A stretch of 64,000 bases of DNA from Streptomyces humicola. Its GTDB lineage: Bacteria > Actinomycetota > Actinomycetes > Streptomycetales > Streptomycetaceae. A program made the position numbers and the translations under genes. Numbering within the stretch: the stretch's first letter is position 1; every line of letters begins with the position of its first letter. A model generated the notes under the pieces. It did no database searches and was not told where the DNA came from. It worked only from the letters and a program-made list of their open reading frames with translations. Of the stretch, positions 1-20,663 are shown in pieces. The stretch covers positions 62,001 through 126,000 of the forward strand of contig NZ_JANFNG010000012.1 in assembly GCF_024436035.1 (NCBI RefSeq), written 5' to 3'.

Positions 1-199
1 CGCACGTCCAGCCGCTCAGGCCCGACTCGAAGCCGGGATTGGCGGCGAGGTTGGAGGTGGCCGCGGTCGCCGTCCCGGCGGCGCCGGTGGCGAAGAGCGC
101 CGCGCCGGAGAGCGCCGCCGTGGCAAGGGCGGCAACCGAGGCCTGCCATCGGCGCCTTGGAGGTGAGGGGGATGAGGGGATGGGGGACGGATGGTCCAT
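1..199 (-). CDS. Secreted chitinase-like or other glycoside hydrolase, N-terminal part
   Basis: Only the first 66 codons are visible; the gene runs off the left edge. The start is the ATG at 199-197, preceded by a GGAGG ribosome site. The N-terminus has an arginine-rich stretch (RRRW), a hydrophobic alanine-rich core and a likely signal-peptidase site near residue 47 (TATAA). It then reads NLAANPGFESGLSGWTC, the typical beginning of a carbohydrate-binding module in secreted Streptomyces hydrolases. A dre-type operator lies 43 bases upstream, which fits a DasR-controlled chitinase. The catalytic domain is outside the window, so the substrate is inferred from the N-terminus and the operator only. 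Confidence 0.7.
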   Translation of the reverse strand, partial: MDHPSPIPSSPSPPRRRWQASVAALATAALSGAALFATGAAGTATAATSNLAANPGFESGLSGWTC

Positions 200-241
200 T
201 GCTGCCTCCGCAGGGGAAGGGCATGGGAAATTGACGTGAAG

Positions 242-257
242 AATGGTCCAGACCAAT
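242..257. promoter_or_regulatory. DasR-responsive element (dre), first copy
   Basis: The 16-mer AATGGTCCAGACCAAT matches the known dre pattern centred on TGGTCTAGACCA, the GntR-family DasR operator that controls chitin and N-acetylglucosamine genes in streptomycetes. It lies 43 bases from the ATG of the leftward chitinase-like gene and about 119 bases from the GTG of the rightward pilus operon. It therefore could act on either or both; the chitinase is the more likely target by distance. Confidence 0.8.
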
Positions 258-375
258 GAGCTTGTCAATACATCAGCCGCCGTCACCCGGCCATTGCCCG
301 TTGAGCGACTTTCGGCATATGACTGACTACGCGCCGATAGGCTGAACCCAAAACGGGCGGTGGGGAGGTCATCAC

Positions 376-1191
376 GTGGCCGGCGTCATGACGGCAGTCG
401 CGAGGGATGCGTCGCTCCCTCTCGAACAGCACGTCCTGCGTTGCAGTGCCGCACTCGACGTGCACGGACATCTCGTCGTCCTCGTCCCGCCGGACGCTTC
501 CGACCCCGCCCGGCGCAGGCTGCACACCGTCCGCTCCGTGCTGGCGGCCGACCGGATGGCGCTGATACCCGTCGGGCTGCCCCCGCTCGCCACCGCGCTC
601 CTCGCCGAGCAGCTGCGGCAGTTGTCCGCCACCGACCTCGGCCCCGGAGTGCTCGCCGGGGCCGCGCCGCTGCTCGCCCACTACTTCTACGCGGGTGCAC
701 TCCTCGGCTCGGTCGCCAGACTCGACCGGGTGAACGTATCCGTCGGATCCCACCTCAAATCCCTCATCCCGGGCAGGCAGTTCGCCGTCGCCGCGACCCC
801 CGAGCCCCGGGTCGTCGAGGCGACCGAGCGCGACGTCCTGCCGGGGCCGGCCTACCCCACGCACCTCACCGTCGCCGCCTCCGGCTCCTTCGACACCTCC
901 TGGATCCACGGCCCGCTCGCCCGCGCATGGCGCCCGCAGCATGTCCGGGACGTCGCTGCGCCCGAGGACTGCGCTCACTGGTGGGGCACCTCACGCGTCG
1001 CCGAATTCACCGCGCACATCGCCGATCCCGGGGTGCTGTACCAGCTCGTCACCTCGGTGCGCCGTACCTCCTGCCGGTGGTGCGCACTGGAGATCATCGG
1101 CGACCGGTGTTTGTTCTGCTCCACCCGTGTCGAGAACCAAGCCGTACGACCAGACGTACGAACAGACGAACCCATGGACCGACGTCGATAG
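376..1191 (+). CDS. Conserved protein of unknown function, first gene of the Tad locus
   Basis: A 271-residue soluble protein of unknown function. It starts at a GTG preceded by GGGGAGG; an in-frame ATG 12 bases later is the alternative. Near the C-terminus two CxxC pairs about 15 residues apart (CRWC and CLFC) look like a zinc ribbon. No signal peptide or membrane segment is visible. It lies 12 bases upstream of the CpaB-like gene and is probably cotranscribed with the pilus genes. I recognise no catalytic motif. A role in pilus assembly is inferred only from position. Confidence 0.7.
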   Translation: MAGVMTAVARDASLPLEQHVLRCSAALDVHGHLVVLVPPDASDPARRRLHTVRSVLAADRMALIPVGLPPLATALLAEQLRQLSATDLGPGVLAGAAPLLAHYFYAGALLGSVARLDRVNVSVGSHLKSLIPGRQFAVAATPEPRVVEATERDVLPGPAYPTHLTVAASGSFDTSWIHGPLARAWRPQHVRDVAAPEDCAHWWGTSRVAEFTAHIADPGVLYQLVTSVRRTSCRWCALEIIGDRCLFCSTRVENQAVRPDVRTDEPMDRRR

Positions 1192-1203
1192 GGCCACCCA
1201 CCG

Positions 1204-1959
1204 ATGAACTCACGTCAGCGGCGCGGCATCATCCTGCTCGTTCTCTCCCTGCTGTGCGCGATCGTCGCGTTCGCCGGGGTCTTCGCGGTCGTCGCCAATG
1301 TGGAGTCCCAGGTCGGCCCGAAGGTCACGGCCTACCGCCTCACCCAGGACGTCCCCGCGTACAAGGCCCTCTCCGCCGACCAGGTGGAGCGGATCGAGAT
1401 ACCCCAGCGCTGGCGGCCGTCCACGGCCGTCACCGACCTCTCCCAGCTGCAGGGCAAGATCGCCGCGACCGGGCTCAAACGCGGCTCCCTGCTGCAGACC
1501 GACATGATCGACGACAAGCCGCAACTCGCACCCGGCCAGATGGAGATCGCGATCATGATCGACGGCGAGACGGGCGTCGCAGGCCAGATCACCCCCGGCT
1601 CGCGCGTCAACATCTTCGCGACCTTTGCCTCCGCCAACAACAACGGCCCCGACGTCTCGAAGATCATCGTGGAGGACGCCCAGGTCATGGACGTCGGCCA
1701 GGCCAAGGCGACCAGCGCGGTCGGCGGCGGGGACAACAGCTCCGACCAGAGCGGCAACGGAAGCACGACCACCCAGGAAGTTCCGATCACCTTCGCCCTC
1801 GACGCCGCCGACGCCCAACGCGTCGCCTATGCCGAGTCGTTCGCCCGCCACGTACGCCTCGCCCTCATCGCACCCGGCGACACCAGCACCATCCCGCCCA
1901 ACGAGCAGACCTACACCCTCTCCGCGGACAAGGGCCCGACACCGGCGGGAGGCCAATGA
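1204..1959 (+). CDS. cpaB: CpaB/RcpC-like SAF-domain pilus assembly protein
   Basis: A 251-residue protein with one N-terminal membrane segment at about residues 9-31, then a SAF domain at about 45-110 (VPAYKALSADQVERIEIP) and an RcpC/CpaB-type domain with the pattern MEIAIMIDGETGVAGQITPGSRVNI. CpaB proteins belong to the Tad secretion apparatus; in diderms they are periplasmic partners of the secretin, and in monoderms the role is less clear. The stop overlaps the next start (ATGATGA), indicating translational coupling to the CpaE-TadE gene. Confidence 0.88.
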   Translation: MNSRQRRGIILLVLSLLCAIVAFAGVFAVVANVESQVGPKVTAYRLTQDVPAYKALSADQVERIEIPQRWRPSTAVTDLSQLQGKIAATGLKRGSLLQTDMIDDKPQLAPGQMEIAIMIDGETGVAGQITPGSRVNIFATFASANNNGPDVSKIIVEDAQVMDVGQAKATSAVGGGDNSSDQSGNGSTTTQEVPITFALDAADAQRVAYAESFARHVRLALIAPGDTSTIPPNEQTYTLSADKGPTPAGGQ

Positions 1960-3554
1960 TGACCGTCCGCATCCTCTCCGCGGCCGCCGACCCCGATACC
2001 GCCCGGACGCTGACCGGCCTGCTCGGCCAACTGCCCGCCACCGACCCCGGCGAGGTACTGCCGGACACCACCGCCCTGCTCGACGCCCTCGCCCGAGCGG
2101 GTGAGAACGGCCTCGACCAGCTGCCCGAAGTCGTCCTCGTCCATGAGCGCGTCACGCCGATGCCCGCACTCGACCTGGTACGGCAGATCGCCCTGCGCTT
2201 CCCGGCCGTCGGCGTCGTGCTGATGACCTCCGACCCGAGCCCGGCGCTCTACGCGGCGGCGATGGAGTCCGGCGCACGCTCGGTGGTCGGGCTGCCGCTG
2301 GCGTACGACGAGTTGGCGGCGCGCGTCGACGCCGCGGCGGCCTGGTCGGTCGGCGTACGACGGCACCTCAGCCCCGGGCGCGAGCTGCCGGGCGGCGCGG
2401 GCGCGCGCCCCGGCGGGACGCTGATCGCCGTCGCCGGTGCCAAGGGCGGCACGGGCACCACCGTCAGCGCCGTCCAACTGGCGCTCGCCGCGCACGCCGC
2501 AGGACGCAGCACGGCACTGGTCGACATGGACTTGCAGGCCGGTGACGTCGCCTCCTACCTCGACGTCCAGTTCCGCCGCTCCATCGCCGATCTCGCCGAC
2601 ATCGGCGAGATCACCGGCCGGGTGCTCCAGGACGCCATGTACGTCCACCCGTCCGGCCTCGCGCTGCTGCTGGCGCCCGCGGACGGCGAGCGCGGCGAGG
2701 ACGTCACCGACCGCTCGGCGCGCCAGCTGCTGCATGCGCTGCGCGGGCGCTTCGACGTCGTCGTGGTGGACTGCGGCACGCAGATGACCAACGCCAACGC
2801 CGTCGCCGTCGAGACCGCGGAGACGGCGGTGCTCGTCACCACCCCGGACGTGGTCGCGGTGCGCGCCGCCAAGCGGATGGTACGGCTGTGGGACCGGTTG
2901 CAGATCCGCAAGCCGGAGGACGTCATCGTCACCGTCAACCGGCACACCCGCGCGAGCGAGATACAGCCGTCCTTGATCATGCGGATCACCGGGACGCGGG
3001 TGGCCAGGACCGTGGTCCCCGCCGCCTTCAAGGAACTGCAGGGCGTCATCGACGCGGGACGCCTCCAGGACCTGGACAACCGCTCCGGCGTCAAACAGGC
3101 GTTGTGGGCGCTCGCCGCCGAGCTCGGCATCACCGGCACCGCGGACGTCCCGGCCACGCCGCCCGCGCAGGCCCGGCGCAGGCGCCGTGAACTGGCCAAG
3201 GGCGACCAGGGACAGGTGGCCCTCGAATTCCTCGGCATGACACCGGTCATCCTCGTCGTGCTGGTCCTCATCTGGCAGGCGGTGCTCGCCGGTTACACCT
3301 TCACCCTTGCGGGCAACGCCGCGGACGAGGCGGCTCGCGCGGCCGCCGTCGGCAACGACGCCCGGGCCGCGGCGCTGGCCGACCTGCCGGGCGCATGGCG
3401 CGGTGACGCGCAGGTGGACCCGGTGGCGACCGGCGGCGGCCTGGTCTCCGTCACCGTCGGCCTGAAGGTCCCGGTGCTCTTCCCCGGGGCGGTCGACTTC
3501 CCGCTGACCGTCCACGGCCACGCAGCCGCGGCGGACGAACAGGACACGCGATGA
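1956..3554 (+). CDS. CpaE-like P-loop ATPase fused to a TadE pseudopilin
   Basis: A 532-residue protein. The open frame extends far upstream to 360, but the real start is the ATG at 1956 (GGGAGGCC before it), overlapping the cpaB stop. Residues 1-130 resemble a response-regulator-like CpaE domain. Residues about 150-400 form a MinD/ParA-type ATPase with a deviant Walker A (GAKGGTGTT, around residue 163) and a VDMDLQAGD motif. From about residue 415 the frame continues without a stop into a TadE segment (GDQGQVALEF, then a membrane helix). CpaE proteins position Tad pili and TadE is a minor pseudopilin. The gene overlaps the next tadE by four bases (ATGA). Confidence 0.9.
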   Translation: MMTVRILSAAADPDTARTLTGLLGQLPATDPGEVLPDTTALLDALARAGENGLDQLPEVVLVHERVTPMPALDLVRQIALRFPAVGVVLMTSDPSPALYAAAMESGARSVVGLPLAYDELAARVDAAAAWSVGVRRHLSPGRELPGGAGARPGGTLIAVAGAKGGTGTTVSAVQLALAAHAAGRSTALVDMDLQAGDVASYLDVQFRRSIADLADIGEITGRVLQDAMYVHPSGLALLLAPADGERGEDVTDRSARQLLHALRGRFDVVVVDCGTQMTNANAVAVETAETAVLVTTPDVVAVRAAKRMVRLWDRLQIRKPEDVIVTVNRHTRASEIQPSLIMRITGTRVARTVVPAAFKELQGVIDAGRLQDLDNRSGVKQALWALAAELGITGTADVPATPPAQARRRRRELAKGDQGQVALEFLGMTPVILVVLVLIWQAVLAGYTFTLAGNAADEAARAAAVGNDARAAALADLPGAWRGDAQVDPVATGGGLVSVTVGLKVPVLFPGAVDFPLTVHGHAAAADEQDTR

Positions 3555-3936
3555 AGCGGCTTCGGGGAGCGCGGGGCGCGGAGAGTGCGCGCGGGCAGGC
3601 GTCGCTGGAGTTCCTGGGGATCCTGCCCGTACTGCTGCTCATCGCCCTCGCCGGGATCCAGCTCGGGCTCGCCGCCTACACCGCCTCCCAGGCCACCACC
3701 GCCGCACGTACCGCCGCGCGGACCGCGTCGCTGCACGACCCGGAGGCCGACCCCCGGCAGGCCGGCCTCGACAGCGTCAGCGGCTGGCTGCAGTCCGGCA
3801 CCCACGTCGACCCCACCGACGAGGGCGAGGCCGTGAAGGTCGACGTCACCATGGACATCCCCTCCGTCATCCCCGGCATGAGCCTGTTCGGGCCCGTCCA
3901 CCGCACCGCGACAATGCCGAAGGAGGACAGTACGCC

Positions 3937-3940
<4 letters not shown>
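3551..3940 (+). CDS. tadE: TadE-family minor pseudopilin
   Basis: A 129-residue protein with a short basic N-terminus, a prepilin-type cleavage pattern G15|QASLEF with Glu at +5, and one hydrophobic helix, as expected for TadE pseudopilins processed by a prepilin peptidase. The C-terminal part is extracytoplasmic and lacks recognisable motifs. It begins in an ATGA overlap with the CpaE-TadE fusion and ends in a GTGA overlap with the CpaF ATPase gene, so it is translated within one tightly coupled operon. Confidence 0.88.
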
Positions 3941-5276
<1,336 letters not shown>

Positions 5277-5280
<4 letters not shown>

Positions 5281-6224
5281 ACGCCCTGCGCGACCAACTC
5301 CCGCTGATCGTGATCGGGGTGACGCTGCTCGCCTGCGTGCTCGGCGTCTGGGGCGTCCACAGCTGGACCCGCGGCCGCGCCCAGCGCGCCGCGCTCCTCG
5401 AACGGCTCGCCACCGAGCCCGGCGAACCGCGCGCCCGCGTCATCCCGTTCGCCCGCCTCGACCGCTCCGTGCGCCGCACCCTCTGGGGCCGGCGGCTCGC
5501 CGCCAACCTCGCCGCCACCGGGACGGCGCTCACCCCAGGGCAGTTCGTGGCCGCCGTCATCGGACTCGTCGTCGGTGCCTGGGCCGTCGCCGTCCTCGTC
5601 TTCGCTCCCTTCTTCGGCCCGATCGCCGCACTGCTCGCGCTGTGGGTCGCGTACTCGTTCCTCAGCTGGCGCCGCCGGATGCGCACCGAGAAGTTCATCA
5701 GCCAACTCCCCGAGCTGGCCCGGGTGCTGGCCAACGCCACCCAGGCGGGGCTCGCCCTGCGCACGGCCGTCTCCATGGCCGCGGAAGAGCTCGAAGCCCC
5801 GGCGGGGGAGGAGCTGCGGAAGGTCTCCGACGCCCTCGCCGTCGGCCACTCCATCGAGGACGCCCTCGGCGAGCTGCGCGACCGGCTGCCCTCCCGCGAA
5901 CTCGTCGTCCTCGTCTCGACGCTCGTGCTCTCCTCACGCGCCGGCGGCTCCCTCGTCGAATCGCTGCGCAACCTGACGGTGACGCTCGAGGAGCGCAAGG
6001 AAACCCGGCGCGAGGTGCGCACCCAGATGTCACAGGTGACGGTCACCGCCTACGCCGTGCCCGCGATCGGCATCGGCTCGCTGCTGCTCCTCGACCAGAT
6101 CATGCCCGGCTCGCTCGCCGCGATGACCGGCTCGACGGCAGGCCGGATCGCGGTGCTCGTCTCGCTCGCACTGTACGTCGTCGGATTCGCCATGATCCGC
6201 CGCATGTCCCGGATCGACGTATGA
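5277..6224 (+). CDS. tadB: TadB-type pilus platform membrane protein
   Basis: A 315-residue integral membrane protein of the type II secretion F (GspF) family. It has an N-terminal helix at about 8-25, two central helices near 85-125, the cytoplasmic GspF region (FISQLPELARVLANATQAG, SRAGGSLVESL) and C-terminal helices. TadB and TadC together form the inner-membrane platform on which the ATPase acts. GTG start overlaps the tadA stop by four bases. Length and layout are normal for the family. Confidence 0.92.
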
Positions 6225-6240
6225 CGGAGAGGGAGGGGAC

Positions 6241-7140
6241 GTGAGGGGACTCGCGCTCGCACTGGCCGCGCTCTTCGCGCTCGGCGTCGCCGGCGTCTGC
6301 TACGGCGTCGCCCTCTACCGCGCCGACACCAAGCTGCCCGACGACCTGGCGCTCGCCCTGGACGTCGGCAGCACCCGCACCACGCGGGTCGGCAACGCCG
6401 TCGACCGGCTCGGCATGCGCTACGCGCCGCTCGTCCTGCGCATGATGGGCCCGGCCCGGGTGGCCCGGGCCCGCGCACGCATCGACCACGCGGGCAACCC
6501 GTACGGCCTGACCGTCGACCGCTACGCCGCCCGCCGCGCCGTCTACGGGGCGCTCGGCGGGCTCGCCGCGCTCGTGCTGCTCGTCAAGGGCCACTGGAGC
6601 CTGGCGCTGCTGATGATCGGCTACGGCTGGGGCTGGACCGACCTCGGCATCTGGCTCGCCGTCCGCAGGCGCCGCGACGAGATCGAGCGGACCCTGCCGG
6701 ACTTCCTCGACGTCCTCGCCGTCGTCGTGAGCGCGGGACTCGGCTTCCGCCAGGCGCTGGAACGCGTCGCCGAGACCTACCGCGGCCCGTGGCCGGACGA
6801 GATCCGCATCGCGCTGCGCCAGATGGACGTCGGCGTCAGCCGCCGCGACGCCTTCGAGCAGCTGCGCAAGCGCAACAGGTCCGAGCAGGTGGGCCAGTTC
6901 GTCACCGCGCTGCAGCAGGGCGAGGAGCTCGGCGCGCCCATTGCCCGCACGCTGCTGCAGATCGCGCAGGACATGCGGCGCACCGAGGCACAGAACGCGC
7001 GCAGGCGCGCCGCCCGCACCGTCCCGCGAGCCACCGCCGTCATCACCATGGTGCTCGTACCGGCCACCATGATCCTGCTGATCACGGGGACGATCCTCGG
7101 CTCGCGCATCGACTTCGCGCAGATCCTCGGAAATGGGTAG
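6241..7140 (+). CDS. tadC: TadC-type pilus platform membrane protein
   Basis: A 299-residue membrane protein with the GspF pattern (TLPDFLDVLAVVVSAGLGFRQALERV, then QGEELGAPIARTLLQIAQDMR) and terminal helices, pairing with TadB as the platform. It starts at a GTG after AGGGAGGGGAC, 16 bases downstream of tadB. The last codons overlap the first possible start of the histidine kinase gene, so the regulators are probably cotranscribed with the pilus genes. Confidence 0.92.
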   Translation: MRGLALALAALFALGVAGVCYGVALYRADTKLPDDLALALDVGSTRTTRVGNAVDRLGMRYAPLVLRMMGPARVARARARIDHAGNPYGLTVDRYAARRAVYGALGGLAALVLLVKGHWSLALLMIGYGWGWTDLGIWLAVRRRRDEIERTLPDFLDVLAVVVSAGLGFRQALERVAETYRGPWPDEIRIALRQMDVGVSRRDAFEQLRKRNRSEQVGQFVTALQQGEELGAPIARTLLQIAQDMRRTEAQNARRRAARTVPRATAVITMVLVPATMILLITGTILGSRIDFAQILGNG

Positions 7141-8284
7141 TGCCATGGGCGAGCCGCATATCGCCGGGTTCCGGCTGGAACTGAGCGCCCTGCAGGCGCT
7201 GTGCCGGCACGTCTTCGCCTTCCGCCTCGCGATGATCGCGATCTCCGCGCCGATCGTGATGTACGGGGCGGATCCGGGCCCCTACCAGTGGGCCGTCGGC
7301 GCCGCGCTCCTGGTCACCTTCATGACCTCGTACGCGCTCTTCCGCGACTGGGAGCGGCTCGGCCCGCTGCTGCTGCGCCACCCCCTGCTGCTGCTCGGCG
7401 ACACGCTCTTCGCCGCGCTGCTGCTCCTCGCGGCGTCGCCGGACAGCCCGCTGGCATATCTGAGCGCGTGCACTCCGCTGCTCGCGGGCCTGGTGTACGG
7501 CGGCAAGGGCGCCGCCTGGTTCACCGTCCTGCAGGCCGTCGTCCTCGCCGCCGTCCTCGCCCTCGCCCCCGGCGTCGGCGCCGACCCCGCCAACTCCCTG
7601 CTGCTGCCCGGTTTCTACGCGATCGCGGGCTGGACCGGGACCGTCCTGCGTCGCCTGCTGCTGCGTTTCGGCGAGGCCACCCAGGCACTCGGCGACACCC
7701 GTGCCAAGCTCGCCGCGGAACGCGCCGTGGGGGAGGAGCGCGCCCGCGTCGCACGTGAGCTCCACGACACCGTGGCCAAGACGCTCGCCGGTGTCGCGCT
7801 CGCGGCCGAGGGCCTGGCGGATTCCGTCTCCGCCGCCCCCGACGCCTCGCCCGAGGTACGCTCCCGCGCCGCGCTGCTCGCCTCCTCGGCGCGGCAGGCC
7901 GCGGCGGAGTCACGGGCGTTGCTGGGACGGCTGCGGGCGGCGCTCGGCACCGGCGCCACCGCCGGACCGTGCGATCCGGTACGGGAGCTGACCGCCGTCG
8001 TCGCCGAAGCACTGGACAACGCCGAGCGGCACGCGGGAGCGTCGAAGGTGGTTCTCACCATCACGGTGACGGACGACGGACACGGACTGCCTGATGGCGT
8101 GGGAGTCGACGCCGGGGCGCTGGAACCGCTGTGCGAGGCCGGCCACTTCGGCCTGATCGGGATGGCCGAGCGAGTGAAGGCGATGGGTGCCCGGCTGAGC
8201 GTGACCGGCCCGGCGGGCAAGGGCACGGAGGTACGGGTCGAACTGCCGCTGGGGGTGAACGGCATTGCGGATCTTGGTGGTTGA
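7133..8284 (+). CDS. NarL-type sensor histidine kinase in the Tad operon
   Basis: A 383-residue membrane kinase. Several hydrophobic helices fill residues about 20-190, then a HisKA_3 dimerisation motif (ARVARELHDTVAKTLAGVAL) carries the phospho-accepting His. The ATP-binding domain is unusually short: N-box (EALDNAERHAG), DDGHGLP and GLIGMAERVKAMGA are present, but the strand region between N-box and G1 box is compressed by about ten residues against typical members. The ATG at 7133 overlaps the tadC stop; an in-frame ATG at 7145 is an alternative. It overlaps the response-regulator gene by 20 bases, so the two form a two-component pair. Confidence 0.9.
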   Translation: MGSAMGEPHIAGFRLELSALQALCRHVFAFRLAMIAISAPIVMYGADPGPYQWAVGAALLVTFMTSYALFRDWERLGPLLLRHPLLLLGDTLFAALLLLAASPDSPLAYLSACTPLLAGLVYGGKGAAWFTVLQAVVLAAVLALAPGVGADPANSLLLPGFYAIAGWTGTVLRRLLLRFGEATQALGDTRAKLAAERAVGEERARVARELHDTVAKTLAGVALAAEGLADSVSAAPDASPEVRSRAALLASSARQAAAESRALLGRLRAALGTGATAGPCDPVRELTAVVAEALDNAERHAGASKVVLTITVTDDGHGLPDGVGVDAGALEPLCEAGHFGLIGMAERVKAMGARLSVTGPAGKGTEVRVELPLGVNGIADLGG

Positions 8285-8978
8285 CGACAGCGCGGTGGTC
8301 CGCGCCGCACTGCGAGCCGTCCTCGGGACGGACGTGGTCGGAGAGGCGCGGGGCGGCGTGGAGGCGGTTGCGGCGGCACGTCGCCTTCACCCCGAGGTGG
8401 TGCTCCTCGACGTGCGGATGCCGGGCGGCGGCGGCCTGGCCGCGCTCCCTGAACTGGTCGCGTCGGGTGCGGCCGTGCTGATGCTGACCTACAGCGGTGA
8501 AGGCGACGTGGTGCGGGAGGCGGTGCGGATGGGCGCGGCCGGCTATCTGGTGCACGGCGAGTTCGACACGGCCGGGCTGACGGCGGCCGTGCGCGACGCG
8601 GCGTCAGGCCGCGCTCACCTCACGCCGACCGCGGCGACGGCTGTGCTCGCGGGGGTACGGGCGGCTGCCGAAGGAGCCGCCGAAGGGGCTGCGCAGGGGA
8701 CGGCCGGCGGTGTACCTTTGCAACCGCAACGGAATTTGCATCTGCAATCCGATGTGGGCGATGCGCGCGCTCGGTTCGGCCTCAGCCAACGGGAGGGGCA
8801 GATCATGGAGTTGGTTGCCGACGGCTTGAGCAATCCGCAGATCGCCGCCGCCTGCTTCGTCAGCGAGAAGACGGTCAAGAACCACATCAACCGCATCTTC
8901 GCCAAGCTGGGCGCAACCCGCCGCGGCCAGGCCATCGCCGTATGGCTGGGTCGGCGGAGGGCCGGGGCGTGCCCATGA
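8265..8978 (+). CDS. NarL/LuxR-family response regulator paired with the Tad histidine kinase
   Basis: A 237-residue DNA-binding regulator. The receiver domain has acidic residues at 7-8 and the phosphorylation site D49 (VVLLDVRMPG). The usual Lys of the YLxKG motif is replaced (YLVHGEF). An Ala/Gly-rich linker leads to a LuxR HTH (LSQREGQIMELVADGLSNPQIAAACFVSEKTVKNHI). The start is a TTG at 8265, the only one that preserves the first receiver strand (RILVVDD); it lies inside the kinase gene. The pair probably controls pilus expression, inferred from operon position. Confidence 0.9.
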   Translation: MRILVVDDSAVVRAALRAVLGTDVVGEARGGVEAVAAARRLHPEVVLLDVRMPGGGGLAALPELVASGAAVLMLTYSGEGDVVREAVRMGAAGYLVHGEFDTAGLTAAVRDAASGRAHLTPTAATAVLAGVRAAAEGAAEGAAQGTAGGVPLQPQRNLHLQSDVGDARARFGLSQREGQIMELVADGLSNPQIAAACFVSEKTVKNHINRIFAKLGATRRGQAIAVWLGRRRAGACP

Positions 8979-9101
8979 GCAGCCGCGCCAGGACGAGGAT
9001 TTGGGCCCGTGGACCCTGGGTGCGGGGCGTGACCGCGTCGTACGCTTCCCGTGACCGACGGGGGGAAGGACGGGGACAACCGCCGAGGGGCAGGGGCCGA
9101 G

Positions 9102-9317
9102 ATGAACGCATGGGTGACGCGACGGATCACGGCGTTTCGCGCACGCATGACAGCACACGCCACAGCACACGCGGACGAGGGCCAGACGTCGTTCGAGTAC
9201 CTGGGGATCGCGGTGGTGATCGCGGTGATCATCGGCGTGCTGGCGAGCACGACAAGCATCGGACAGGCCGTCCTCAACGGCATCCTCAACGAGATCACAA
9301 AGATCACGAGCCACTGA
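9102..9317 (+). CDS. flp: Flp-type major pilin
   Basis: A 71-residue Flp pilin. The start is the ATG at 9102 after GGGGCCGAG; an earlier frame opening at 9051 is rejected. The prepilin site is G27|QTSFEYLG with Glu at +5 and the Flp hallmark Tyr at +6, followed by a long hydrophobic helix (IAVVIAVIIGVLAS). It is the main filament subunit, exported through TadA/B/C and cleaved by a prepilin peptidase such as the one at 12450. The leader is long (27 residues). Its stop overlaps the probable start of the TadG-like gene. Confidence 0.92.
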   Translation: MNAWVTRRITAFRARMTAHATAHADEGQTSFEYLGIAVVIAVIIGVLASTTSIGQAVLNGILNEITKITSH

Positions 9318-9898
9318 ACCGGGCCGCAGGCCCCCGCAGCGAGCAAGGACAGACCCTCCCGCTCTACATCGTGGCGGTAGCGGCACTGCTCTTGCTCGCT
9401 GTCGCTTTCTTCGCCGTGGGCCAGGCCTCGGCCGTGCGCGGCGACGCCCAGACCGCCGCCGATGCCGCCGCGCTGGCGGCCGCACGCAGCGAACGCGACG
9501 GCGTGCAGGACGCTTTGCTGAAGGCCCTCACCAGCGGCAATCTCGCGCAACTCGGCACTCTGCTCCAGCCGGGAGCCAATGACTGTGCCGCCGCAGGCCA
9601 GTACGCCGCCGACAACCGTGCGAGCGTGACGAGGTGCGATCCAGCCAACGGAGAGCCCGGCTACACGGTCAAGGTCATCAGCCTCGACACGGTCGGCGGC
9701 TCCCCGGTCCAGGGGACGCAGTCCATGCACGCCACGGCGACGGCCACCGCCGTCATCGAACCCCGCTGCACGGTGCAGGGAAAGAACGGGAACTCCATCC
9801 GCCTCACCTGTGACGGCAACGACATCTCGATCGACCCGACCGCAGCAGGCTTCCACCTCGACCTGGCCGATTTCTTCACCGTTCATCTCAGCACGTAA
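9314..9898 (+). CDS. TadG-like / Tad-domain pilus protein (probable CTG start)
   Basis: A protein of about 194 residues with a short basic N-terminus, one membrane helix (residues 17-36) and a TadG signature (GDAQTAADAAALAAARSERDG). It carries a Cys pair and a secreted C-terminal domain. No ATG or GTG lies near the conserved beginning; the frame stays open upstream inside flp. The most likely start is a CTG at 9314 in a CTGA overlap with the flp stop. The leader shows G12|QTLPLY, where Leu replaces the usual Glu at +5, so cleavage by the prepilin peptidase is uncertain. Confidence 0.75.
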   Translation: MNRAAGPRSEQGQTLPLYIVAVAALLLLAVAFFAVGQASAVRGDAQTAADAAALAAARSERDGVQDALLKALTSGNLAQLGTLLQPGANDCAAAGQYAADNRASVTRCDPANGEPGYTVKVISLDTVGGSPVQGTQSMHATATATAVIEPRCTVQGKNGNSIRLTCDGNDISIDPTAAGFHLDLADFFTVHLST

Positions 9899-9909
9899 GG
9901 ACCGGGGAC

Positions 9910-10503
9910 ATGAGCATGGTGCAGAGCTCAACCAGCCGTAAGGGGGCGGCGGTCGGCACGCTCGCGTTCTGCCTGGCCCTGGCGCTCACCGGCTGCGGTG
10001 GCGGCGGCAGTTCCCACGCGAAGCCCACGGCGTCCCCGACGAAGAACGCGTCCGGAGGAGCCCAGTCCACCGGCGGTCAGCCCGCGGCGGCACCGAGCCC
10101 CTCCCAGACGCTCGCGCAGCTGAAGGGCGAGGACGGCATGGAGGTCGACATCACCTCGGCCATCCGGGACGCGGGCGGCTTCGTCACCGTGCAGGGCACC
10201 ATCACCAACAACGGAACCAGCCCCTTCAACGCCACCTCGTGGACGGGCCAGGAGATGGCCGTCCAGTCGTCGGGACCGTCCGTCGCCGGCGCCGTCCTCG
10301 TCGACGAGACCGGCAAGAAGCGCTACTACGTGCTCCGCGACACCGAGGGCAAGTGCTTGTGCACGATGGGCCTGGTCGGGATCGAGCCCAAGCAGTCCGT
10401 CCCGTTCTTCGCCCAGTTCCCCGCGCCGCCGCAGTCCACCACGCAGGTCGACTTCGAGCTGCCCACCATGCCGCCGGCCACCATCCAGATCTCCCAGGGA
10501 TGA
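9910..10503 (+). CDS. Lipoprotein of the Tad locus
   Basis: A 197-residue lipoprotein with a hydrophobic leader ending in the lipobox LTGC (Cys29), a Gly/Ser/Pro/Thr-rich spacer at about 30-70, and a beta-rich C-terminal domain with no family I recognise (FVTVQGTITNNGTSPFN suggests an immunoglobulin-like or DUF4352-like fold). A CLC pair occurs at KCLCTMGL. The ATG follows GGACCGGGGAC, 11 bases after the TadG-like gene. It shares an ATGA overlap with the OmpA-like gene, so the two proteins may act together at the cell surface. Confidence 0.82.
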   Translation: MSMVQSSTSRKGAAVGTLAFCLALALTGCGGGGSSHAKPTASPTKNASGGAQSTGGQPAAAPSPSQTLAQLKGEDGMEVDITSAIRDAGGFVTVQGTITNNGTSPFNATSWTGQEMAVQSSGPSVAGAVLVDETGKKRYYVLRDTEGKCLCTMGLVGIEPKQSVPFFAQFPAPPQSTTQVDFELPTMPPATIQISQG

Positions 10504-11138
10504 GAACCGCGATGCCTCACACCCCCCTGCGCACCGCCGCCGTCGCCGCATCGGCCGTGCTCGCCCTCGCCCTCGCCACCGACGCCCGTGCCGACGGCAG
10601 CTCCTCCCCCTCGCCCCTGCCGTCCGCGACGCCCTCCGCGCCCACCCCGATCGACACCTCGTCCCCCGCGCTCAAGCTCCCGCAGGGCGACACCCTCGCG
10701 CCGCCCAAGGTCCTCGACATCACCACGGTCGTGTCGGACTCCGACAACGCAGAGACCGAGTCGCAGTCCAACACCGAGATCACCTACGCGCTCGAAGCGG
10801 ACGTCCTCTTCTCCAAGGACAGCTACCAGCTCAACCCCGCCGCCCTCGACCGCATCAACGCCATCGCCACGGACATCAACAACCGCCATGTGACCGGCGC
10901 CATCCGCGTCTTCGGCTTCACCGACAACCTCGGCACGGTCGAGCACGGCCAGGTGCTCGCCAAGGAGCGGGCCAACGCCGTCTATCAGGCGCTCGCCCCG
11001 CAGATCACCGGTGGCAACACCTTCGACGTGCGCGGGTACGGCAACCAGTACTACGTCGCGGACAACTCGACGGAGGCGGGCCGTGCCCAGAACCGCCGCG
11101 TCGAGATCTCCTTCACCCCGCCGTCGACGTCTCCGTGA
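10500..11138 (+). CDS. Secreted OmpA/MotB-domain peptidoglycan-binding protein
   Basis: A 212-residue secreted protein. It starts at the ATG overlapping the lipoprotein stop. The signal peptide ends near DARA|DG (residue 31), followed by a Ser/Pro spacer and an OmpA_C domain at about 105-210 (ADVLFSKDSYQLNPAAL, VFGFTDNLG, ERANAVYQAL, GRAQNRRVEISF). OmpA_C domains bind diaminopimelate in peptidoglycan, so this protein may anchor the pilus to the wall of this monoderm; that is inference from its place at the end of the pilus operon. Its last 26 bases overlap the convergent DUF192 gene. Confidence 0.88.
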   Translation: MRTAMPHTPLRTAAVAASAVLALALATDARADGSSSPSPLPSATPSAPTPIDTSSPALKLPQGDTLAPPKVLDITTVVSDSDNAETESQSNTEITYALEADVLFSKDSYQLNPAALDRINAIATDINNRHVTGAIRVFGFTDNLGTVEHGQVLAKERANAVYQALAPQITGGNTFDVRGYGNQYYVADNSTEAGRAQNRRVEISFTPPSTSP

Positions 11139-11496
11139 TCCTCGTGACCTCCACCGTCACGGTCACACCGGGCCGCAACCCCCACCCCCGCATGGCGCCG
11201 GCCTGCGCCTCCAGGACGTGACGGGCGCGCAGCCGGGGACGGCCGAGCCGGCCCGGGCGCATCGTCCGCACCGCCAGCACACGCATCCGGCGGTCGAGGT
11301 ACGCGACGTCGATCGCGAAGCGCATACCGAAGGTATGGACGCCGCCGGCGGGCGTGAGCAGGATCATGCCGTCGATTCCGTCCCGGCCCAGCAGGCCGTG
11401 GGTGCGCGCCCGGTGCGACGCCGCGATCTCCAGCTCCACCGCACGCTGACCCATCCTGAGTACGCCGCTGCCGTCCCGCAGCCGCCGTCGCGCCAC
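11113..11496 (-). CDS. DUF192-family protein
   Basis: A 127-residue DUF192 protein. The core pattern includes SHRARTHGLLGRDGIDGMIL, VHTFGMRFAIDVAYLD and LEAQAGAMRGWGLRPG, which are typical. The function of the family is unknown; members often sit beside secretion or pilus genes. The GTG start at 11496 is chosen for the GGGGAGG seven bases upstream; a longer frame to 11556 would run through the dre operator. It converges on and slightly overlaps the OmpA-like gene. A dre site lies 24-39 bases before the start, suggesting DasR control. Confidence 0.82.
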   Translation of the reverse strand: MARRRLRDGSGVLRMGQRAVELEIAASHRARTHGLLGRDGIDGMILLTPAGGVHTFGMRFAIDVAYLDRRMRVLAVRTMRPGRLGRPRLRARHVLEAQAGAMRGWGLRPGVTVTVEVTRITETSTAG

Positions 11497-11519
11497 TGTC
11501 AACCCTCCCCGAAGCCCCC

Positions 11520-11535
11520 GCTGGTCCAGACCAAT
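11520..11535. promoter_or_regulatory. DasR-responsive element (dre), second copy
   Basis: The 16-mer GCTGGTCCAGACCAAT shares TGGTCCAGACCAAT with the first copy at 242-257 and matches the dre pattern. It lies just upstream of the DUF192 start and would sit over that promoter. Together the two copies bracket the Tad locus. Confidence 0.75.
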
Positions 11536-11576
11536 GCCAGGCCATTGGCGCGGCAACGCGCCCGGCCGTGTCAGAT

Positions 11577-11589
11577 GGTCTCCGAGACC
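11577..11589. promoter_or_regulatory. Palindrome GGTCTC-C-GAGACC before a possible short transcript
   Basis: A perfect 13-base palindrome, GGTCTCCGAGACC, 14 bases upstream of a -10-like TACAGT (11603-11608). It resembles the half sites of dre but with a three-base spacer, so it is not counted as one. It could be the operator of the short transcript ending at the hairpin at 11624-11657. Confidence 0.4.
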
Positions 11590-11623
11590 CCGTGCCGCGC
11601 GCTACAGTAAAAGTCCCCCCCTC

Positions 11624-11657
11624 GGGCCGATCCGCATCCCACCCCGCGGATCGGCCC
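11624..11657 (+). terminator. Strong hairpin with T-rich tail
   Basis: A 12-base-pair perfect stem (GGGCCGATCCGC with its complement) and ten-base loop, followed by TCTCCTCTTTTTCTCCCCCTTTTCTCC on the plus strand. It looks like a good intrinsic terminator, yet no plus-strand gene ends before it; the nearest genes upstream are leftward. It may end a short RNA starting near 11615, or serve the leader of the lipoprotein gene. Confidence 0.55.
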
Positions 11658-11826
11658 GTCTCCTCTTTTTCTCCCCCTTTTCTCCTCTTTTCGCCGCTTT
11701 CTCTTCCACGCGTCACCCTCGTGACACCTCGCATCCTGATCGAATTCACGTGCGCGTGAAGCTGGGGTAATCCTGGTAACGGAATGTGATCGAAAGCGCG
11801 GTCCGCTCAGAGGTTCGGATCGCCGC

Positions 11827-11873
11827 GCGGGTAACGCGGGTAACGTAGGGCTTCGGCCAGTGCATGACGTCAT
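11827..11873. repeat. Tandem GCGGGTAAC repeat and ATGACGTCAT palindrome
   Basis: Two head-to-tail copies of GCGGGTAAC (11827-11844) are followed by a perfect ten-base palindrome ATGACGTCAT (11864-11873), within 70 bases of the lipoprotein start. Their place fits promoter or operator elements for the lipoprotein-prepilin peptidase pair. No regulator is identified. Confidence 0.4.
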
Positions 11874-11895
11874 TGCCGCGTCCGGGATTGCCTGA

Positions 11896-12453
11896 GTGAG
11901 GGTGAGAGTGAGTAGCTCGATCGGCACAACGAAGCGGTGTGCGACGGCGGTTGGCGCCGTCATGCTGCTGGGTGCGGCAAGTGCGGGATGCGCTGTGGGC
12001 AAGGGCGCACCGGACGGCTGGACGTACTTCAATGCCCATGGCATCGCCTTCGCCGTCCCCAAGGACTGGCGCAGGACCGCCACGGCCGATCTGCCGCCGG
12101 GGGTGCTGGCCGCGGCCCACCTCGACGAGCACGGCACCCAGATCGCCGACGTCGAGGTGCTGACGCGCAAGCCGCCGACGCCCAAGGGGTACAAGCTCAC
12201 GGCCAAGCCGAGCACGCCGTTCAAGATGGGCGGCCACCTCTCGACAGAGGTGAACTACGCATTCCTCTCCAAAACGGACGGATTGCCGCGTCGCGTGACC
12301 GAGGTCACCACCAAGACGGCGAGCGGCCGGCCCGTCGTCGTGCTGATCACCGCCTCCGGCAAGGGCGCGGGCAGCTGGGTGGACACGATGTACCGCATCG
12401 CCAACAGCATCCAGATCGGCACCATCGGCAAGGGGAACCTCGTCAAGACGTGA
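11896..12453 (+). CDS. Putative lipoprotein
   Basis: A 185-residue protein with a hydrophobic leader and a Cys at residue 32 in an imperfect lipobox (ASAGC). The mature part has a PsbP/LpqN-like beginning (WTYFNAHGIAFAVPKDWRR) seen in actinobacterial lipoproteins of unknown role. Three GTG codons (11896, 11902, 11908) compete as start; the last is best spaced from GAGGG. The stop overlaps the prepilin peptidase start (GTGA), which suggests a joint role at the membrane. Confidence 0.78.
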   Translation: MRVRVSSSIGTTKRCATAVGAVMLLGAASAGCAVGKGAPDGWTYFNAHGIAFAVPKDWRRTATADLPPGVLAAAHLDEHGTQIADVEVLTRKPPTPKGYKLTAKPSTPFKMGGHLSTEVNYAFLSKTDGLPRRVTEVTTKTASGRPVVVLITASGKGAGSWVDTMYRIANSIQIGTIGKGNLVKT

Positions 12454-13115
12454 CCCGAGACGTGATCCAGGACGTGATCGTCGCCGCGGCGGCGGCGTGG
12501 GGGGCCGGCACCGGGATCGCGCTCCCGCGACTGGCACGCCGGTTCACCGGGGCGACCGCCACCGGCCGCCGCCTGCCGCAGGGGGCGGGGGCGGCAGGGT
12601 CGGCCGTCCTGAGCGCCCTCGTCTGCGTCGCGCTCGCCCTGACCAACGGGGCCAGGCCCGAGCTGGCGGCCTGGCTGCTGCTCGTCCCGCCCGCGATGCT
12701 GCTCACCCGGATCGACCTCGCCGTGCGGCGACTGCCCGACGTCCTCACCCTGCCCCTCGGCACCGGCACCGCGGCCGCGCTGGGGGTGGTGGCGCTGGTA
12801 CCCGGGCACGAGGGGTCATGGACGCGTGCGCTGCTCGGCGGGGTGGTGCTCGGGGCCGCGTACTTCGTCCTGCTGCTGATCAATCCGTCCGGTCTGGGGT
12901 TCGGTGACGTCAAGCTGGCGCCCACCCTCGGTCTCGCCCTGGGCTGGTACGGCTGGCCCGTGCTCTTCGCCGGGACGTTCGCCGGATTCCTGCTCGGTGC
13001 GATCACGGGGCTGATCCTGCTGGCGGCCGGACGGGCGAACCGGAAGACACCGATCCCGTTCGGCCCGTTCATGCTGCTCGGAGCGCTGGGCGGGGTGCTG
13101 CTCGGCTCCGGGTGA
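12450..13115 (+). CDS. A24-family prepilin peptidase
   Basis: A 221-residue integral membrane aspartyl protease that would cleave the Flp and TadE leaders. The first catalytic Asp lies in the TRIDLAVRRLPD segment (D89), the second in GFGDVK (D153); multiple helices surround them. It lacks the N-terminal methylase/zinc domain of PilD-type enzymes, as is usual for Tad systems. The GTG start overlaps the lipoprotein stop. It is separate from the tad operon by the leftward DUF192 gene but is clearly functionally linked. Confidence 0.9.
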   Translation: MTRDVIQDVIVAAAAAWGAGTGIALPRLARRFTGATATGRRLPQGAGAAGSAVLSALVCVALALTNGARPELAAWLLLVPPAMLLTRIDLAVRRLPDVLTLPLGTGTAAALGVVALVPGHEGSWTRALLGGVVLGAAYFVLLLINPSGLGFGDVKLAPTLGLALGWYGWPVLFAGTFAGFLLGAITGLILLAAGRANRKTPIPFGPFMLLGALGGVLLGSG

Positions 13116-13254
13116 GCCCGCGCCTGAGCGGCCGTCCGGGCAGCCCTGCGAGCAGCTCCCGGGCAGCCCGGAGCGATCACACCCCGGTCGTTGCCGGTCG
13201 GGGAGCCGCAGTATGGTGGCGGCGGGGTGCCGACAGTTCGAGGGGCTGGACACG

Positions 13255-14019
13255 ATGAAGAATCTGCGCGATCTGGTCTACGGGCTCTACGAACGCCGCA
13301 TCGAGGCCCACCTGGACCGTGCACAGGCGCCCAAGCACATCGGCGTCATCCTGGACGGCAACCGGCGCTGGGCGCGCGCCGCCGGAGGCACCGCAGAACA
13401 GGGCCACCAGGCCGGCGCGAACAAGATCGCCGATCTTCTCGGCTGGTGCCAGGAGACGGGTGTCGAGGTCGTCACTCTCTGGCTGCTCTCCACCGACAAC
13501 CTCGGCCGTCCGGCCGAAGAGCTCGACCCGCTGCTCGGCATCATCGAGAGCGCCGTCACCGGCCTGGCCGAGGACGGCCGCTGGCGCGTCCACCACGTGG
13601 GCACGCTGGATCTGCTGCCCTCGCACACCCAGCGGGTGCTGAAGGAGGCCGAGCAGGCCACCGACGCGGTGGACGGCATGCTCGTCAATGTCGCCGTGGG
13701 CTACGGCGGCCGCCAGGAGATCGCCGACGCCGTCCGCTCGCTGCTGCTGGAGCAGGCGAGCCGCGGCACCTCCATCGAGGACCTCGCCGAGATCCTCGAC
13801 ATCGACCACATCGCGGAGCACCTGTACACGCGCGGTCAGCCCGACCCGGACCTGCTCATCCGCACCTCGGGCGAGCAGCGCCTCTCCGGCTTCATGCTCT
13901 GGCAGAGCGCGCACTCGGAGTACTACTTCTGCGAGGTCTTCTGGCCCGCGTTCCGCAAGGTCGACTTCCTGCGCGCGCTCCGCGACTACGCCGCACGCCA
14001 CCGCCGCTACGGCAATTAG
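13255..14019 (+). CDS. uppS: cis-Prenyl (isoprenyl) transferase, UppS family
   Basis: A 254-residue polyprenyl diphosphate synthase. The catalytic motif [14 protein letters not shown] is at residues 28-41 (D34), followed by TLWLLSTDN, and the C-terminal substrate pattern [25 protein letters not shown] is intact. The ATG at 13255 follows GAGGGG; an upstream ATG at 13213 is less likely. Streptomycetes have two such proteins. This one, near a PIN-PhoH gene, resembles the paralogue whose product length (short Z-farnesyl or long undecaprenyl chain) I cannot tell from sequence. It makes lipid carriers for wall synthesis. Confidence 0.9.
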
Positions 14020-14335
14020 GCCTGTCCGGGGCCCGCCCGGCCGAGGCGATTTTGGCCACAGGGGGCATGCCCCCACACCCCCAAGGGAATACCCCCCTCA
14101 GGCCGACACCCGAGCCACGGGCGTCGGAGAGAAGCGGGTGGCAGGGTGCCGCCCGCCCGGGAGGCCCATTGCACACGGACGTGCTGTCACCCGATGGCAT
14201 CGACCGCGTCTCGACGCAGGGCCGCGGCCAGGCCCTGCAGCCCGGCCCCGGCCCAGTACTTGGCGACGCACGCGCTGTGACACCAGCGTCCGGTGCCGTC
14301 GCACCCCGATCTCTCCCGAGGGGGTTCGTCCACCC
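14020..14335. other. Intergenic region between uppS and the PhoH gene
   Basis: No coding potential is recognised. A perfect GGGGGCATGCCCCC palindrome is at 14061-14074, followed by C-rich sequence; it may be a weak terminator for uppS. GAGGGGG near 14320 is the ribosome site of the PhoH gene. Confidence 0.6.
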
Positions 14336-15655: not shown

Positions 15656-15706
15656 CCCACTGTGCGTCAACTGCACCTGATGCAGCCCGGTTAGGGCATT
15701 TTGGAG

Positions 15707-15735
15707 GCTGCTGCGTCCGCGAAGGGCGCAGCAGC
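15707..15735 (+). terminator. Hairpin after the PIN-PhoH gene
   Basis: A nine-base-pair perfect stem (GCTGCTGCG with CGCAGCAGC) and an 11-base loop, 52 bases after the PhoH stop, followed by TTACT. It is a plausible terminator without a long U tract, as is common in streptomycetes. Confidence 0.6.
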
Positions 15736-16091
15736 TTACTCGTGCCGGAGCGCGACACGCGCGCATTTCCCGAAAACAGGCGGCTCAAACAGCGTGTGAG
15801 CTTTACCACCCACAGGAGAATTGCGTTCAGGCGGCGGCCTCGGGCAGGGTGTGAGGCTGTCAGGCCCCGCTCACGACACACCAGCACCCCCAGCGGTGTT
15901 GAACAACAGAACTGAACAGCGTCGCCGTTGTGAGCCGCCCAGCACCACGCGGGCCCCGCGAGGGGATCGCACCGGGCCAGTGCCTCCAGTGACCAGCCGG
16001 ATGAACGCAGGTCCGGTCCAAGGGAGGCCCGAGTCAGGGGCACGATTGCGTCCGCGCGGTCACCACGCGGACGGTGCTGGAAGGAAACCGT
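15736..16091. other. Long leader region of the secreted SLT gene
   Basis: 356 bases without a gene. Leaders of streptomycete wall-hydrolase genes often contain a c-di-AMP (ydaO) riboswitch. I looked for its conserved blocks and did not find the CAGCTAAC segment, so none is called. Several G/C-rich inverted segments exist (around 15943-15985), and GGAAGGAAACC immediately precedes the start at 16092. Confidence 0.5.
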
Positions 16092-16769: not shown

Positions 16770-16788
16770 GCGGCTGCGCCGCCGACGC

Positions 16789-16826
16789 AAAGCCCCCGAA
16801 TCCCGCAGAGCCGGGCCGGGGGCTTT
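16789..16826 (+). terminator. Intrinsic terminator of the SLT gene
   Basis: AAAGCCCCC at 16789-16797 pairs perfectly with GGGGGCTTT at 16818-16826, a classic stem ending in Ts, 20 bases after the stop. Confidence 0.85.
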
Positions 16827-16959
16827 ACGCTGGCCGCGGCCCGCCCGGCCGTACTGTCCGGCTGCCCCTTACGGGGAAGCAACCCCGCACCCCGGTAACC
16901 TCGTCCTCCTCACGGGTTCACACGTCGGTGTCCGTGCAGGCGATGGTATGGGGAAGGCA

Positions 16960-18333: not shown

Positions 18334-18337
18334 AGAT

Positions 18338-18375
18338 ACGGGGGTTTCGGGGGCTAATGCCCCCGAAACCCCCGT
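18338..18375. terminator. Bidirectional terminator between the permease and ahpD
   Basis: A perfect 17-base-pair stem (ACGGGGGTTTCGGGGGC with its complement) and four-base loop TAAT in the 54-base gap between convergent genes. Confidence 0.9.
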
Positions 18376-18387
18376 GCGTCCTCGCCG

Positions 18388-18927: not shown

Positions 18928-20663
<1,736 letters not shown>

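What the first reader, a model, noticed from the sequence alone, without database searches (positions are those of the whole stretch)
242..11535. Tad pilus locus bracketed by two DasR operators
AATGGTCCAGACCAAT at 242-257 and GCTGGTCCAGACCAAT at 11520-11535 both match dre and share 14 bases. They lie at the two ends of a complete Tad locus, the first beside a chitinase-like gene. This suggests that chitin or N-acetylglucosamine availability controls pili that may attach hyphae to chitin. I am not aware of a chitin-regulated Tad pilus; the link is inference.
Basis: partly seen in the sequence, partly recalled or inferred. Interest (0 to 1): 0.8.

Follow-up and report, generated by a model that had tools for sequence, protein, structure and literature searches.

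The report
Chitinase operator beside Tad pilus genes
One of the two DNA switches flanking these pilus genes is the ordinary, widely conserved chitin switch of the neighbouring chitinase gene, and the other is an unconserved site beside a small gene of unknown function, so there is no good evidence that chitin controls the pilus genes.

Summary
Both sites are present as described and share TGGTCCAGACCAAT; about 0.02 such 14-mers are expected in this 7.07-Mb genome. The genome encodes DasR. The claim that they control the Tad pilus is not supported.

The left site lies inside the predicted promoter of a divergent GH18 chitinase: its core ends 7 nt from a TTGACA box. Its S. coelicolor counterpart, between chiA (SCO5003) and SCO5004, is bound by DasR in vivo and released after N-acetylglucosamine addition (PMC4398421, Table 1). 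In 49 of 49 relatives with the chitinase beside tad the site is present; in 11 of 11 where other genes separate them it stays with the chitinase; in 10 without a detected chitinase but with a complete flank, 8 lack it and 2 keep it as an orphaned chitinase promoter. Distance to the TTGACA is fixed (6–8 nt in 48 of 49), that to a tad −10-like box varies (60–433 nt).

The right site is 23 bp upstream of a DUF192 gene pointing back toward tad. It is absent at 27 of 27 DUF192 genes in relatives and in the other genome of the genus. It is not the end of the locus: the only prepilin peptidase found lies beyond it.

What is real is a conserved chitinase–tad neighbourhood.

The parts
1..199 (-). 5' end of a secreted GH18 chitinase gene (start ATG at 199; gene continues left of the window to about -1315, = L006:4685-6199)
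   Evidence: Pfam Glyco_hydro_18 2.4e-19 and CBM_4_9 5e-16 on L006:4685-6199:-; contains DGVDIDLE (sequence; that this is the GH18 active-site motif is recalled)
242..257 (-). dre1, DasR operator lying in the spacer of the predicted chitinase promoter
   Evidence: sequence; S. coelicolor counterpart DasR-bound in vivo (PMC4398421 Table 1); conserved with the chitinase in relatives
263..268 (-). chitinase -35 candidate TTGACA, 7 nt from the dre1 core
   Evidence: sequence; TGTCAA with at most one mismatch 6-8 nt from the core in 48 of 49 relatives with chitinase beside tad
240..245 (-). chitinase -10 candidate CATTCT, 17 nt from the -35, overlapped by dre1
   Evidence: sequence; inference
338..343 (+). 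candidate tad -10 box TAGGCT, about 80 nt downstream of dre1
   Evidence: inference from the GATA-type box upstream of tad in relatives; the window does not match the Streptomyces element as a whole
376..1191 (+). first gene of the tad operon, no Pfam family; by order and site position the counterpart of SCO5004
1204..1959 (+). RcpC/CpaB
   Evidence: Pfam RcpC 3.8e-20, SAF 4.7e-7
1956..3554 (+). TadZ-like ATPase with a TadE domain in its C-terminal part
   Evidence: Pfam CbiA, AAA_31, TadE
3551..3940 (+). TadE-like
   Evidence: Pfam TadE 3.9e-11
3937..5280 (+). TadA/CpaF ATPase
   Evidence: Pfam T2SSE 1.1e-73
5277..6224 (+). TadB
   Evidence: Pfam T2SSF 4.8e-18
6241..7140 (+). TadC
   Evidence: Pfam DUF5936 7.7e-64, T2SSF 6.6e-21
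7133..8284 (+). histidine kinase inside the tad locus
   Evidence: Pfam HisKA_3, HATPase_c
8265..8978 (+). LuxR-type response regulator inside the tad locus
   Evidence: Pfam Response_reg, GerE
9102..9317 (+). Flp-like pilin candidate
   Evidence: no Pfam hit; EYLG motif and hydrophobic stretch seen in the sequence; homologues in relatives
9314..9898 (+). TadG-like
   Evidence: Pfam Tad (PF13400) 5.4e-8
9910..10503 (+). putative lipoprotein
   Evidence: no Pfam family; homologues in relatives
10512..11138 (+). OmpA-like protein, last gene of the tad operon
   Evidence: Pfam OmpA 1.6e-12
11113..11496 (-). DUF192 gene (GTG start at 11496), convergent with tad
   Evidence: Pfam DUF192 3.3e-14
11520..11535 (-). 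dre2, 23 bp upstream of the DUF192 start codon
   Evidence: sequence; no such site at 27 of 27 DUF192 genes of relatives or in G001
11623..11658 (+). terminator-like hairpin (13-bp stem) followed by TCTCCTCTTTTT, between dre2 and the next + strand gene
   Evidence: -30.4 kcal/mol for 11600-11690, z -7.0
11896..12453 (+). lipoprotein-like ORF between dre2 and the prepilin peptidase
   Evidence: no Pfam family; matched in L024 and L034
12693..13010 (+). prepilin peptidase domain (within ORF 11937-13115), the only PF01478 match found in the genome
   Evidence: E 9.8e-13

Best explanation
dre1 is the DasR operator of a divergent GH18 chitinase gene, counterpart of S. coelicolor chiA. It lies between the -35 and -10 candidates of the chitinase promoter, so bound DasR would shut that promoter until GlcNAc-derived ligands release it. 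The tad operon merely lies on the other side of the shared intergenic region and is read from its own promoter further on. dre2 is a separate dre-like site, seen only in this genome, immediately upstream of a DUF192 gene that converges on tad; if bound, it would most likely repress DUF192. Shown: site positions, gene content, presence of DasR, conservation with the chitinase, dissociation from tad, and published DasR binding at the S. coelicolor counterpart. Inferred: promoter boxes, start sites, repression of the chitinase in this species, and any effect of dre2.
For: (1) Spacing: TGTCAA (complement of TTGACA) follows the dre core by 6-8 nt in 48 of 49 relatives with chitinase beside tad (exact in 47) and by 7 nt in the window. 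(2) Separation: 11 of 11 loci with other genes between chitinase and tad keep dre plus TTGACA at the chitinase and have none within 700 bp of tad. (3) Absence: of 12 loci without a detected chitinase 9 lack dre (one of them, L036, for want of sequence); the 3 with it are L067 (contig ends before the chitinase position) and L030/L031, which keep the whole TTGACA/dre unit as an orphan. (4) Second sample: 23 of 23 Streptomyces-like loci with the chitinase beside tad have dre with the TTGACA; of 7 without a chitinase within 1.5 kb, 6 with over 1.4 kb upstream have none and the seventh (L141) has dre but is cut by its contig end; other genera 8 of 8 with, 0 of 4 without (L114 has only 533 nt upstream). 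(5) Extra dre sites in L035, L058, L061 and L082 each precede a second ORF left of the chitinase, GH18-like by eye in L035, L058 and L061; the three printed (L035, L061, L082) show the same 7-nt spacing. (6) The distance from dre to the tad -10-like box is 60-433 nt (n=48, SD 97); the tad element occurs in loci without dre near tad, e.g. L044, L057, L054, L070. (7) PMC4398421 Table 1: SCO5003-SCO5004 site bound at 24 h and (one probe) 54 h and before GlcNAc addition in both media, and not at any of the three times after it.
Against: No transcription start has been mapped here; promoter boxes are predictions. L030/L031 (probably one event) keep dre 283-295 bp upstream of tad without a chitinase, which could mean that it serves tad. 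L048 lacks the TTGACA at the usual place. In L023, L024, L026 and L027 dre lies only 81-83 nt upstream of the tad -10-like box, near enough for an effect. dre2 is too good a match to be composition noise, so selection on it in this species is possible. Table 1 gives no gel shift for the chiA site. A review (PMC6097792, passage) says that chitinase transcript levels changed little in the dasR mutant, so DasR is not the whole switch even for chitinases. The loci compared are related, so the counts are not independent events.
Confidence: 0.85

Rival explanations
1. DasR at dre1 controls both divergent transcripts, so chitin/GlcNAc co-regulates the chitinase and the Tad pilus.
For: Shared intergenic region; the chitinase is within 1.3 kb of the first tad gene in 49 of 72 classified loci; in vivo DasR binding between SCO5003 and SCO5004 with the position given relative to both genes; dre kept upstream of tad in L030/L031 without a chitinase.
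Against: dre goes with the chitinase in 11 of 11 separated loci and is missing upstream of tad in 8 of 10 loci without a detected chitinase and with a complete flank, and in 6 of 6 of a second sample; no fixed spacing to tad; tad promoter-like element present without dre; L030/L031 keep the chitinase TTGACA too, as a relic would.
Confidence: 0.12
2. dre2 is a functional, recently gained DasR operator for DUF192, and possibly for the pilus-maturation genes to its right, in this lineage only.
For: Its 16-mer differs at one position from the DasR-bound S. coelicolor chiA site; 0.019 copies of the 14-mer expected per genome; 23 bp upstream of the DUF192 start codon.
Against: Absent at 27 of 27 DUF192 genes in relatives and in G001; no TTGACA at the chitinase-type spacing; a strong terminator-like hairpin lies between it and the rightward genes.
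Confidence: 0.4
3. dre2 is a chance match or a decayed fragment of a chitinase promoter with no role.
For: Not conserved; two TGGTCYRGACCA are expected per genome by chance and five are found; up to two mismatches from TGGTCTAGACCA the genome has 228 matches, no more than the reversed control with 266.
Against: The longer 14-mer is expected only 0.019 times, and the place is directly upstream of a gene.
Confidence: 0.5

Closest known systems
DasR operator of chiA (SCO5003-SCO5004 intergenic region), S. coelicolor
   Same: Same gene pair by order, nearly identical 16-mer (ggtggtccagaccaat) and similar layout: -77 and -258 in the paper; about 58-73 and 252-267 nt in the S. violaceorubidus locus L081, which has the same 16-mer.
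   Different: Shorter distances in the window (42 bp between site and chitinase ATG, 118 bp between site and first tad gene); DasR binding not shown in this organism.
Streptomyces chitinase promoters with direct repeats (Delic 1992; Ni and Westpheling 1997; known to me only as cited in PMC6097792, passages seen)
   Same: Chitin-inducible chitinase promoters carrying repeats; DasR binding to chitinase promoter segments later shown (same passages).
   Different: Here a single site rather than a pair of repeats.
Actinobacterial Tad/Flp loci, e.g. Micrococcus luteus competence pili (PMC4322843, outline and abstract seen)
   Same: Tad genes of a high-GC Gram-positive bacterium, with a prepilin peptidase.
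   Different: The M. luteus role is DNA uptake; no role in streptomycetes was given in the papers seen.
Chitin-regulated type IV pilus of Vibrio cholerae (recalled, from no call)
   Different: Other pilus class and other regulators; no evidence for such control here.

Membership tests
DasR-responsive element (dre), left site | match to A(G/C)TGGTCTAGACCA(G/C)T | tested here: met
   12-bp core with one mismatch; 3 of 16 positions differ from the full consensus, as in the DasR-bound chiA site (by eye)
DasR-responsive element (dre), left site | DasR encoded in the genome with its own regulon sites | tested here: met
   L020:491-1366 matches DasR structures 4zs8 and 9i0v at about 4e-141; one-mismatch sites at or near dasR/solute-binding gene, HPr, PTS EIIC, PdtaS and two GH18 genes; other such sites (L003, L004, L012, L013) lie near no evident regulon gene
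DasR-responsive element (dre), left site | lies in a promoter of a chitin/GlcNAc gene | tested here: met
   between predicted -35 and -10 of a GH18 chitinase; conserved spacing
DasR-responsive element (dre), left site | bound by DasR in this organism | not testable with these tools
   published binding only for the S. coelicolor counterpart
DasR-responsive element (dre), right site | match to the dre consensus | tested here: met
   core with one mismatch; 3 of 16 differ from the full consensus (by eye)
DasR-responsive element (dre), right site | conserved with the gene it would control | tested here: not met
   0 of 27 DUF192 genes in relatives have a site within one mismatch of TGGTCYRGACCA in the 700 bp upstream (L065 has less than 700 bp there); absent in G001
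DasR-regulated Tad operon | dre conserved upstream of tad independently of the chitinase | tested here: not met
   exception L030/L031
DasR-regulated Tad operon | fixed spacing of dre to the tad promoter | tested here: not met
   60-433 nt, n=48; the tad promoter itself is a prediction
DasR-regulated Tad operon | tad transcript responds to GlcNAc or dasR | not testable with these tools
Tad/Flp pilus locus | TadA ATPase, TadB/TadC, TadZ, RcpC, TadE/TadG, Flp pilin, prepilin peptidase | tested here: met
   the Flp pilin is assigned by motif and position only; the peptidase lies right of the bracket

The most novel reading that the evidence does not exclude
The chitinase and the Tad locus form a conserved functional unit of Streptomycetaceae (attach to chitin, then digest it) in which DasR at the shared intergenic region also tunes the pilus, and in this lineage a second, newly gained dre at DUF192 extends GlcNAc control to the far end of the locus beside the prepilin peptidase.
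Probability: 0.08. Interest if true: 0.65.

Novelty: new member of a known kind. Interest (0 to 1): 0.27.

Why it matters
It shows how a pair of good operator matches can suggest a regulatory link that comparison then assigns to the neighbour gene. If DasR did control tad, streptomycetes would have a chitin-responsive adhesion pilus; the conserved chitinase–tad neighbourhood makes that worth one direct expression test.

Tried and rejected
Chance as the explanation of both sites: rejected for dre1 by conservation, unlikely by base composition for dre2.

dre2 as a conserved tad feature: rejected. A family-wide pattern search for dre followed by the DUF192 start matched 4 of 394 genomes; for the three besides the window's own, tblastn printed no DUF192 match. 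That pattern is narrow, so one search is the main test.

An RNA element or tRNA near dre2: no Rfam match at gathering score in window 1-20000, no tRNA in the window. Consensus scan of 1-12500: no sigma-70 promoter called, so the boxes rest on comparison; the scan also missed the hairpin at 11623, whose loop of 10 exceeds its limit.

PDB relatives of the DUF192 protein: none at E 0.01. In one search and the other DUF192 searches I used window:11128-11499, which begins one codon before the GTG at 11496 and omits the last residues.

Literature: DasR with 'Tad pili' gave 0 papers; DasR with 'pilus' gave 9, none about streptomycete pili by title; Streptomyces + 'Tad pilus' + chitin gave 3, none on this by title; SCO5003-SCO5008 gave 4 papers; other searches were (listings seen). 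SCO5005 is listed among genes expressed like the phosphate-starvation response (PMC2267785, section 12) and SCO5006/SCO5008 as septum site-determining proteins (PMC3897704, one passage): hints of other control, not followed. PMC12370203: one passage; pilus, pili and Tad do not occur in its main text. PMC9739842: one passage.
Full report
Observation. The two 16-mers are at the stated places, are the only sites in the window with at most one mismatch to TGGTCTAGACCA, and share TGGTCCAGACCAAT. The genome (7.07 Mb, 78 contigs) has five TGGTCYRGACCA places against 2.0 expected from a first-order model; the 14-mer is expected 0.019 times and occurs twice. Against this, with up to two mismatches the consensus is no commoner (228) than its reversed control (266), so only close matches mean anything. 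Its DasR is L020:491-1366 (GntR plus UTRA), matching DasR crystal structures at about 4e-141. Of 21 places with at most one mismatch to TGGTCTAGACCA, those whose neighbours I examined include the dasR/solute-binding gene pair, HPr, a PTS EIIC gene, PdtaS and two further GH18 genes, as expected of the known regulon (compare PMC4398421 Table 1); L004, L012 and L013 showed no evident regulon gene, nor did L003, whose TGGTCCGGACCA has two mismatches, and some places were not examined.

Left site. The chitinase runs off the window; with the flank from the genome it is a GH18 enzyme with CBM4_9 and a signal-like N-terminus. 42 bp separate dre1 from its ATG and 118 bp from the first tad gene. On the chitinase strand the sequence reads TTGACA, 17 nt including most of dre1, CATTCT: the operator sits inside the predicted promoter.

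Known counterpart. Table 1 of PMC4398421 (section 5, part 1 read; passages) lists SCO5003-SCO5004, chiA, with ggtggtccagaccaat at −77 and −258, bound at 24 h and (one probe) 54 h, and in both media bound before but not after GlcNAc addition; no gel shift is listed for it. The S. violaceorubidus locus L081 has the same 16-mer between its chitinase and first tad gene at similar offsets. SCO5006 is annotated as a septum site-determining protein (PMC3897704, passage) and as an orphan response regulator of ATPase type (PMC9739842, passage), fitting TadZ as third gene. So SCO5004 onward is very probably the S. coelicolor tad operon; this is inferred from order, since I did not fetch the S. coelicolor sequence.

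Does the site belong to tad? Of these, 72 have a match to the first tad gene; the other 8 (L025, L053, L056, L060, L072, L097, L099, L101) were not classified. In 49 of the 72 the chitinase match lies within 1.3 kb of tad, and 49 of 49 have dre (47 exact, 2 with one mismatch to TGGTCYRGACCA); 48 of 49 have TGTCAA within one mismatch 6-8 nt away, the exception being L048. In 11 the chitinase lies further off; dre stays with it in 11 of 11 and none lies within 700 bp of tad. In 12 no chitinase was detected: 9 lack dre (L036 has no upstream sequence), L067 is cut by its contig end, and L030/L031 keep dre together with the TTGACA box where other sequence lies in place of the chitinase. Of 24 genomes chosen to cover 17 genera, 12 had the first tad gene; 8 of 8 with the chitinase had dre, 0 of 4 without (L114 has only 533 nt upstream). 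The samples may share species and are related by descent. In G008, G012 and G022, which lack the chitinase beside tad, four GH18 homologues elsewhere have dre-like sites just upstream; a fifth (L126) has none; G001 has no such chitinase at E 1e-30.

A separate tad promoter. Upstream of tad in many Streptomyces lies a conserved element, TTCTCC, 17 nt, TACAGT or similar; the 36 hits used to describe it include loci without dre near tad. Not all loci carry it in this form: the window and its near relatives show only a GATA-type box (window GATAGGCT, 336-343), so here the promoter is an inference. dre lies 60-433 nt upstream of this box (n=48).

Right site. dre2 is 23 bp upstream of the GTG of a DUF192 gene that converges on tad. 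None of 27 DUF192 genes in the 80 loci has a site within one mismatch of TGGTCYRGACCA in the 700 bp upstream, and G001, the only other genome of the genus held, has none within three mismatches upstream of its copy. A 13-bp hairpin followed by a T-rich tract (z −7.0) lies between dre2 and the next rightward gene, so a rightward effect is unlikely. The only prepilin peptidase found in the genome lies further right; in several relatives it is the divergent neighbour of DUF192. dre2 therefore sits within the extended Tad locus, not at its end. No site with at most two mismatches to TGGTCTAGACCA occurs between the two.

Verdict. dre1: an ordinary, conserved chitinase operator whose counterpart is already published. 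dre2: a strong but unconserved match, candidate operator of DUF192. The chitin-controlled Tad pilus is not supported by the comparison, though no expression data were at hand to exclude it. The widely conserved chitinase–tad neighbourhood is real and may reflect shared ecology or merely the conserved order of the core chromosome.

Noticed in passing
L023-L102, L111-L122, L137-L166: A GH18 chitinase lies divergently beside the tad operon in most Streptomycetaceae loci examined (49 of 72, 23 of 30, 8 of 12); the searches showed no paper on this by title.
   Followed up: partly
e.g. L081, about 180 bp upstream of the first tad gene: A strongly conserved element AAACGCTGTTCTCCGGTCAC-N5-CGTGGATACAGTGCT upstream of tad in many Streptomyces, probably its promoter plus a regulator site.
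   Followed up: partly
window 1956-3554: TadZ-like ATPase and a TadE domain are in one open reading frame, apparently a fusion.
   Followed up: no
window 7133-8978: A histidine kinase and LuxR-type response regulator are embedded in the tad locus; matched in many but not all relatives. A likelier tad regulator than DasR.
   Followed up: no
L030 5198-5406, L031 4979-5179: No chitinase detected, but its TTGACA/dre unit is kept upstream of tad.
   Followed up: partly
L035 3765, L058 785, L061 4042, L082 406: Second dre preceding a second ORF left of the chitinase (GH18-like by eye in L035, L058, L061; not run through Pfam).
   Followed up: partly
window 11623-11658: Strong terminator-like hairpin on the + strand; tad transcripts might run antisense through DUF192 and dre2 to it.
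   Followed up: no
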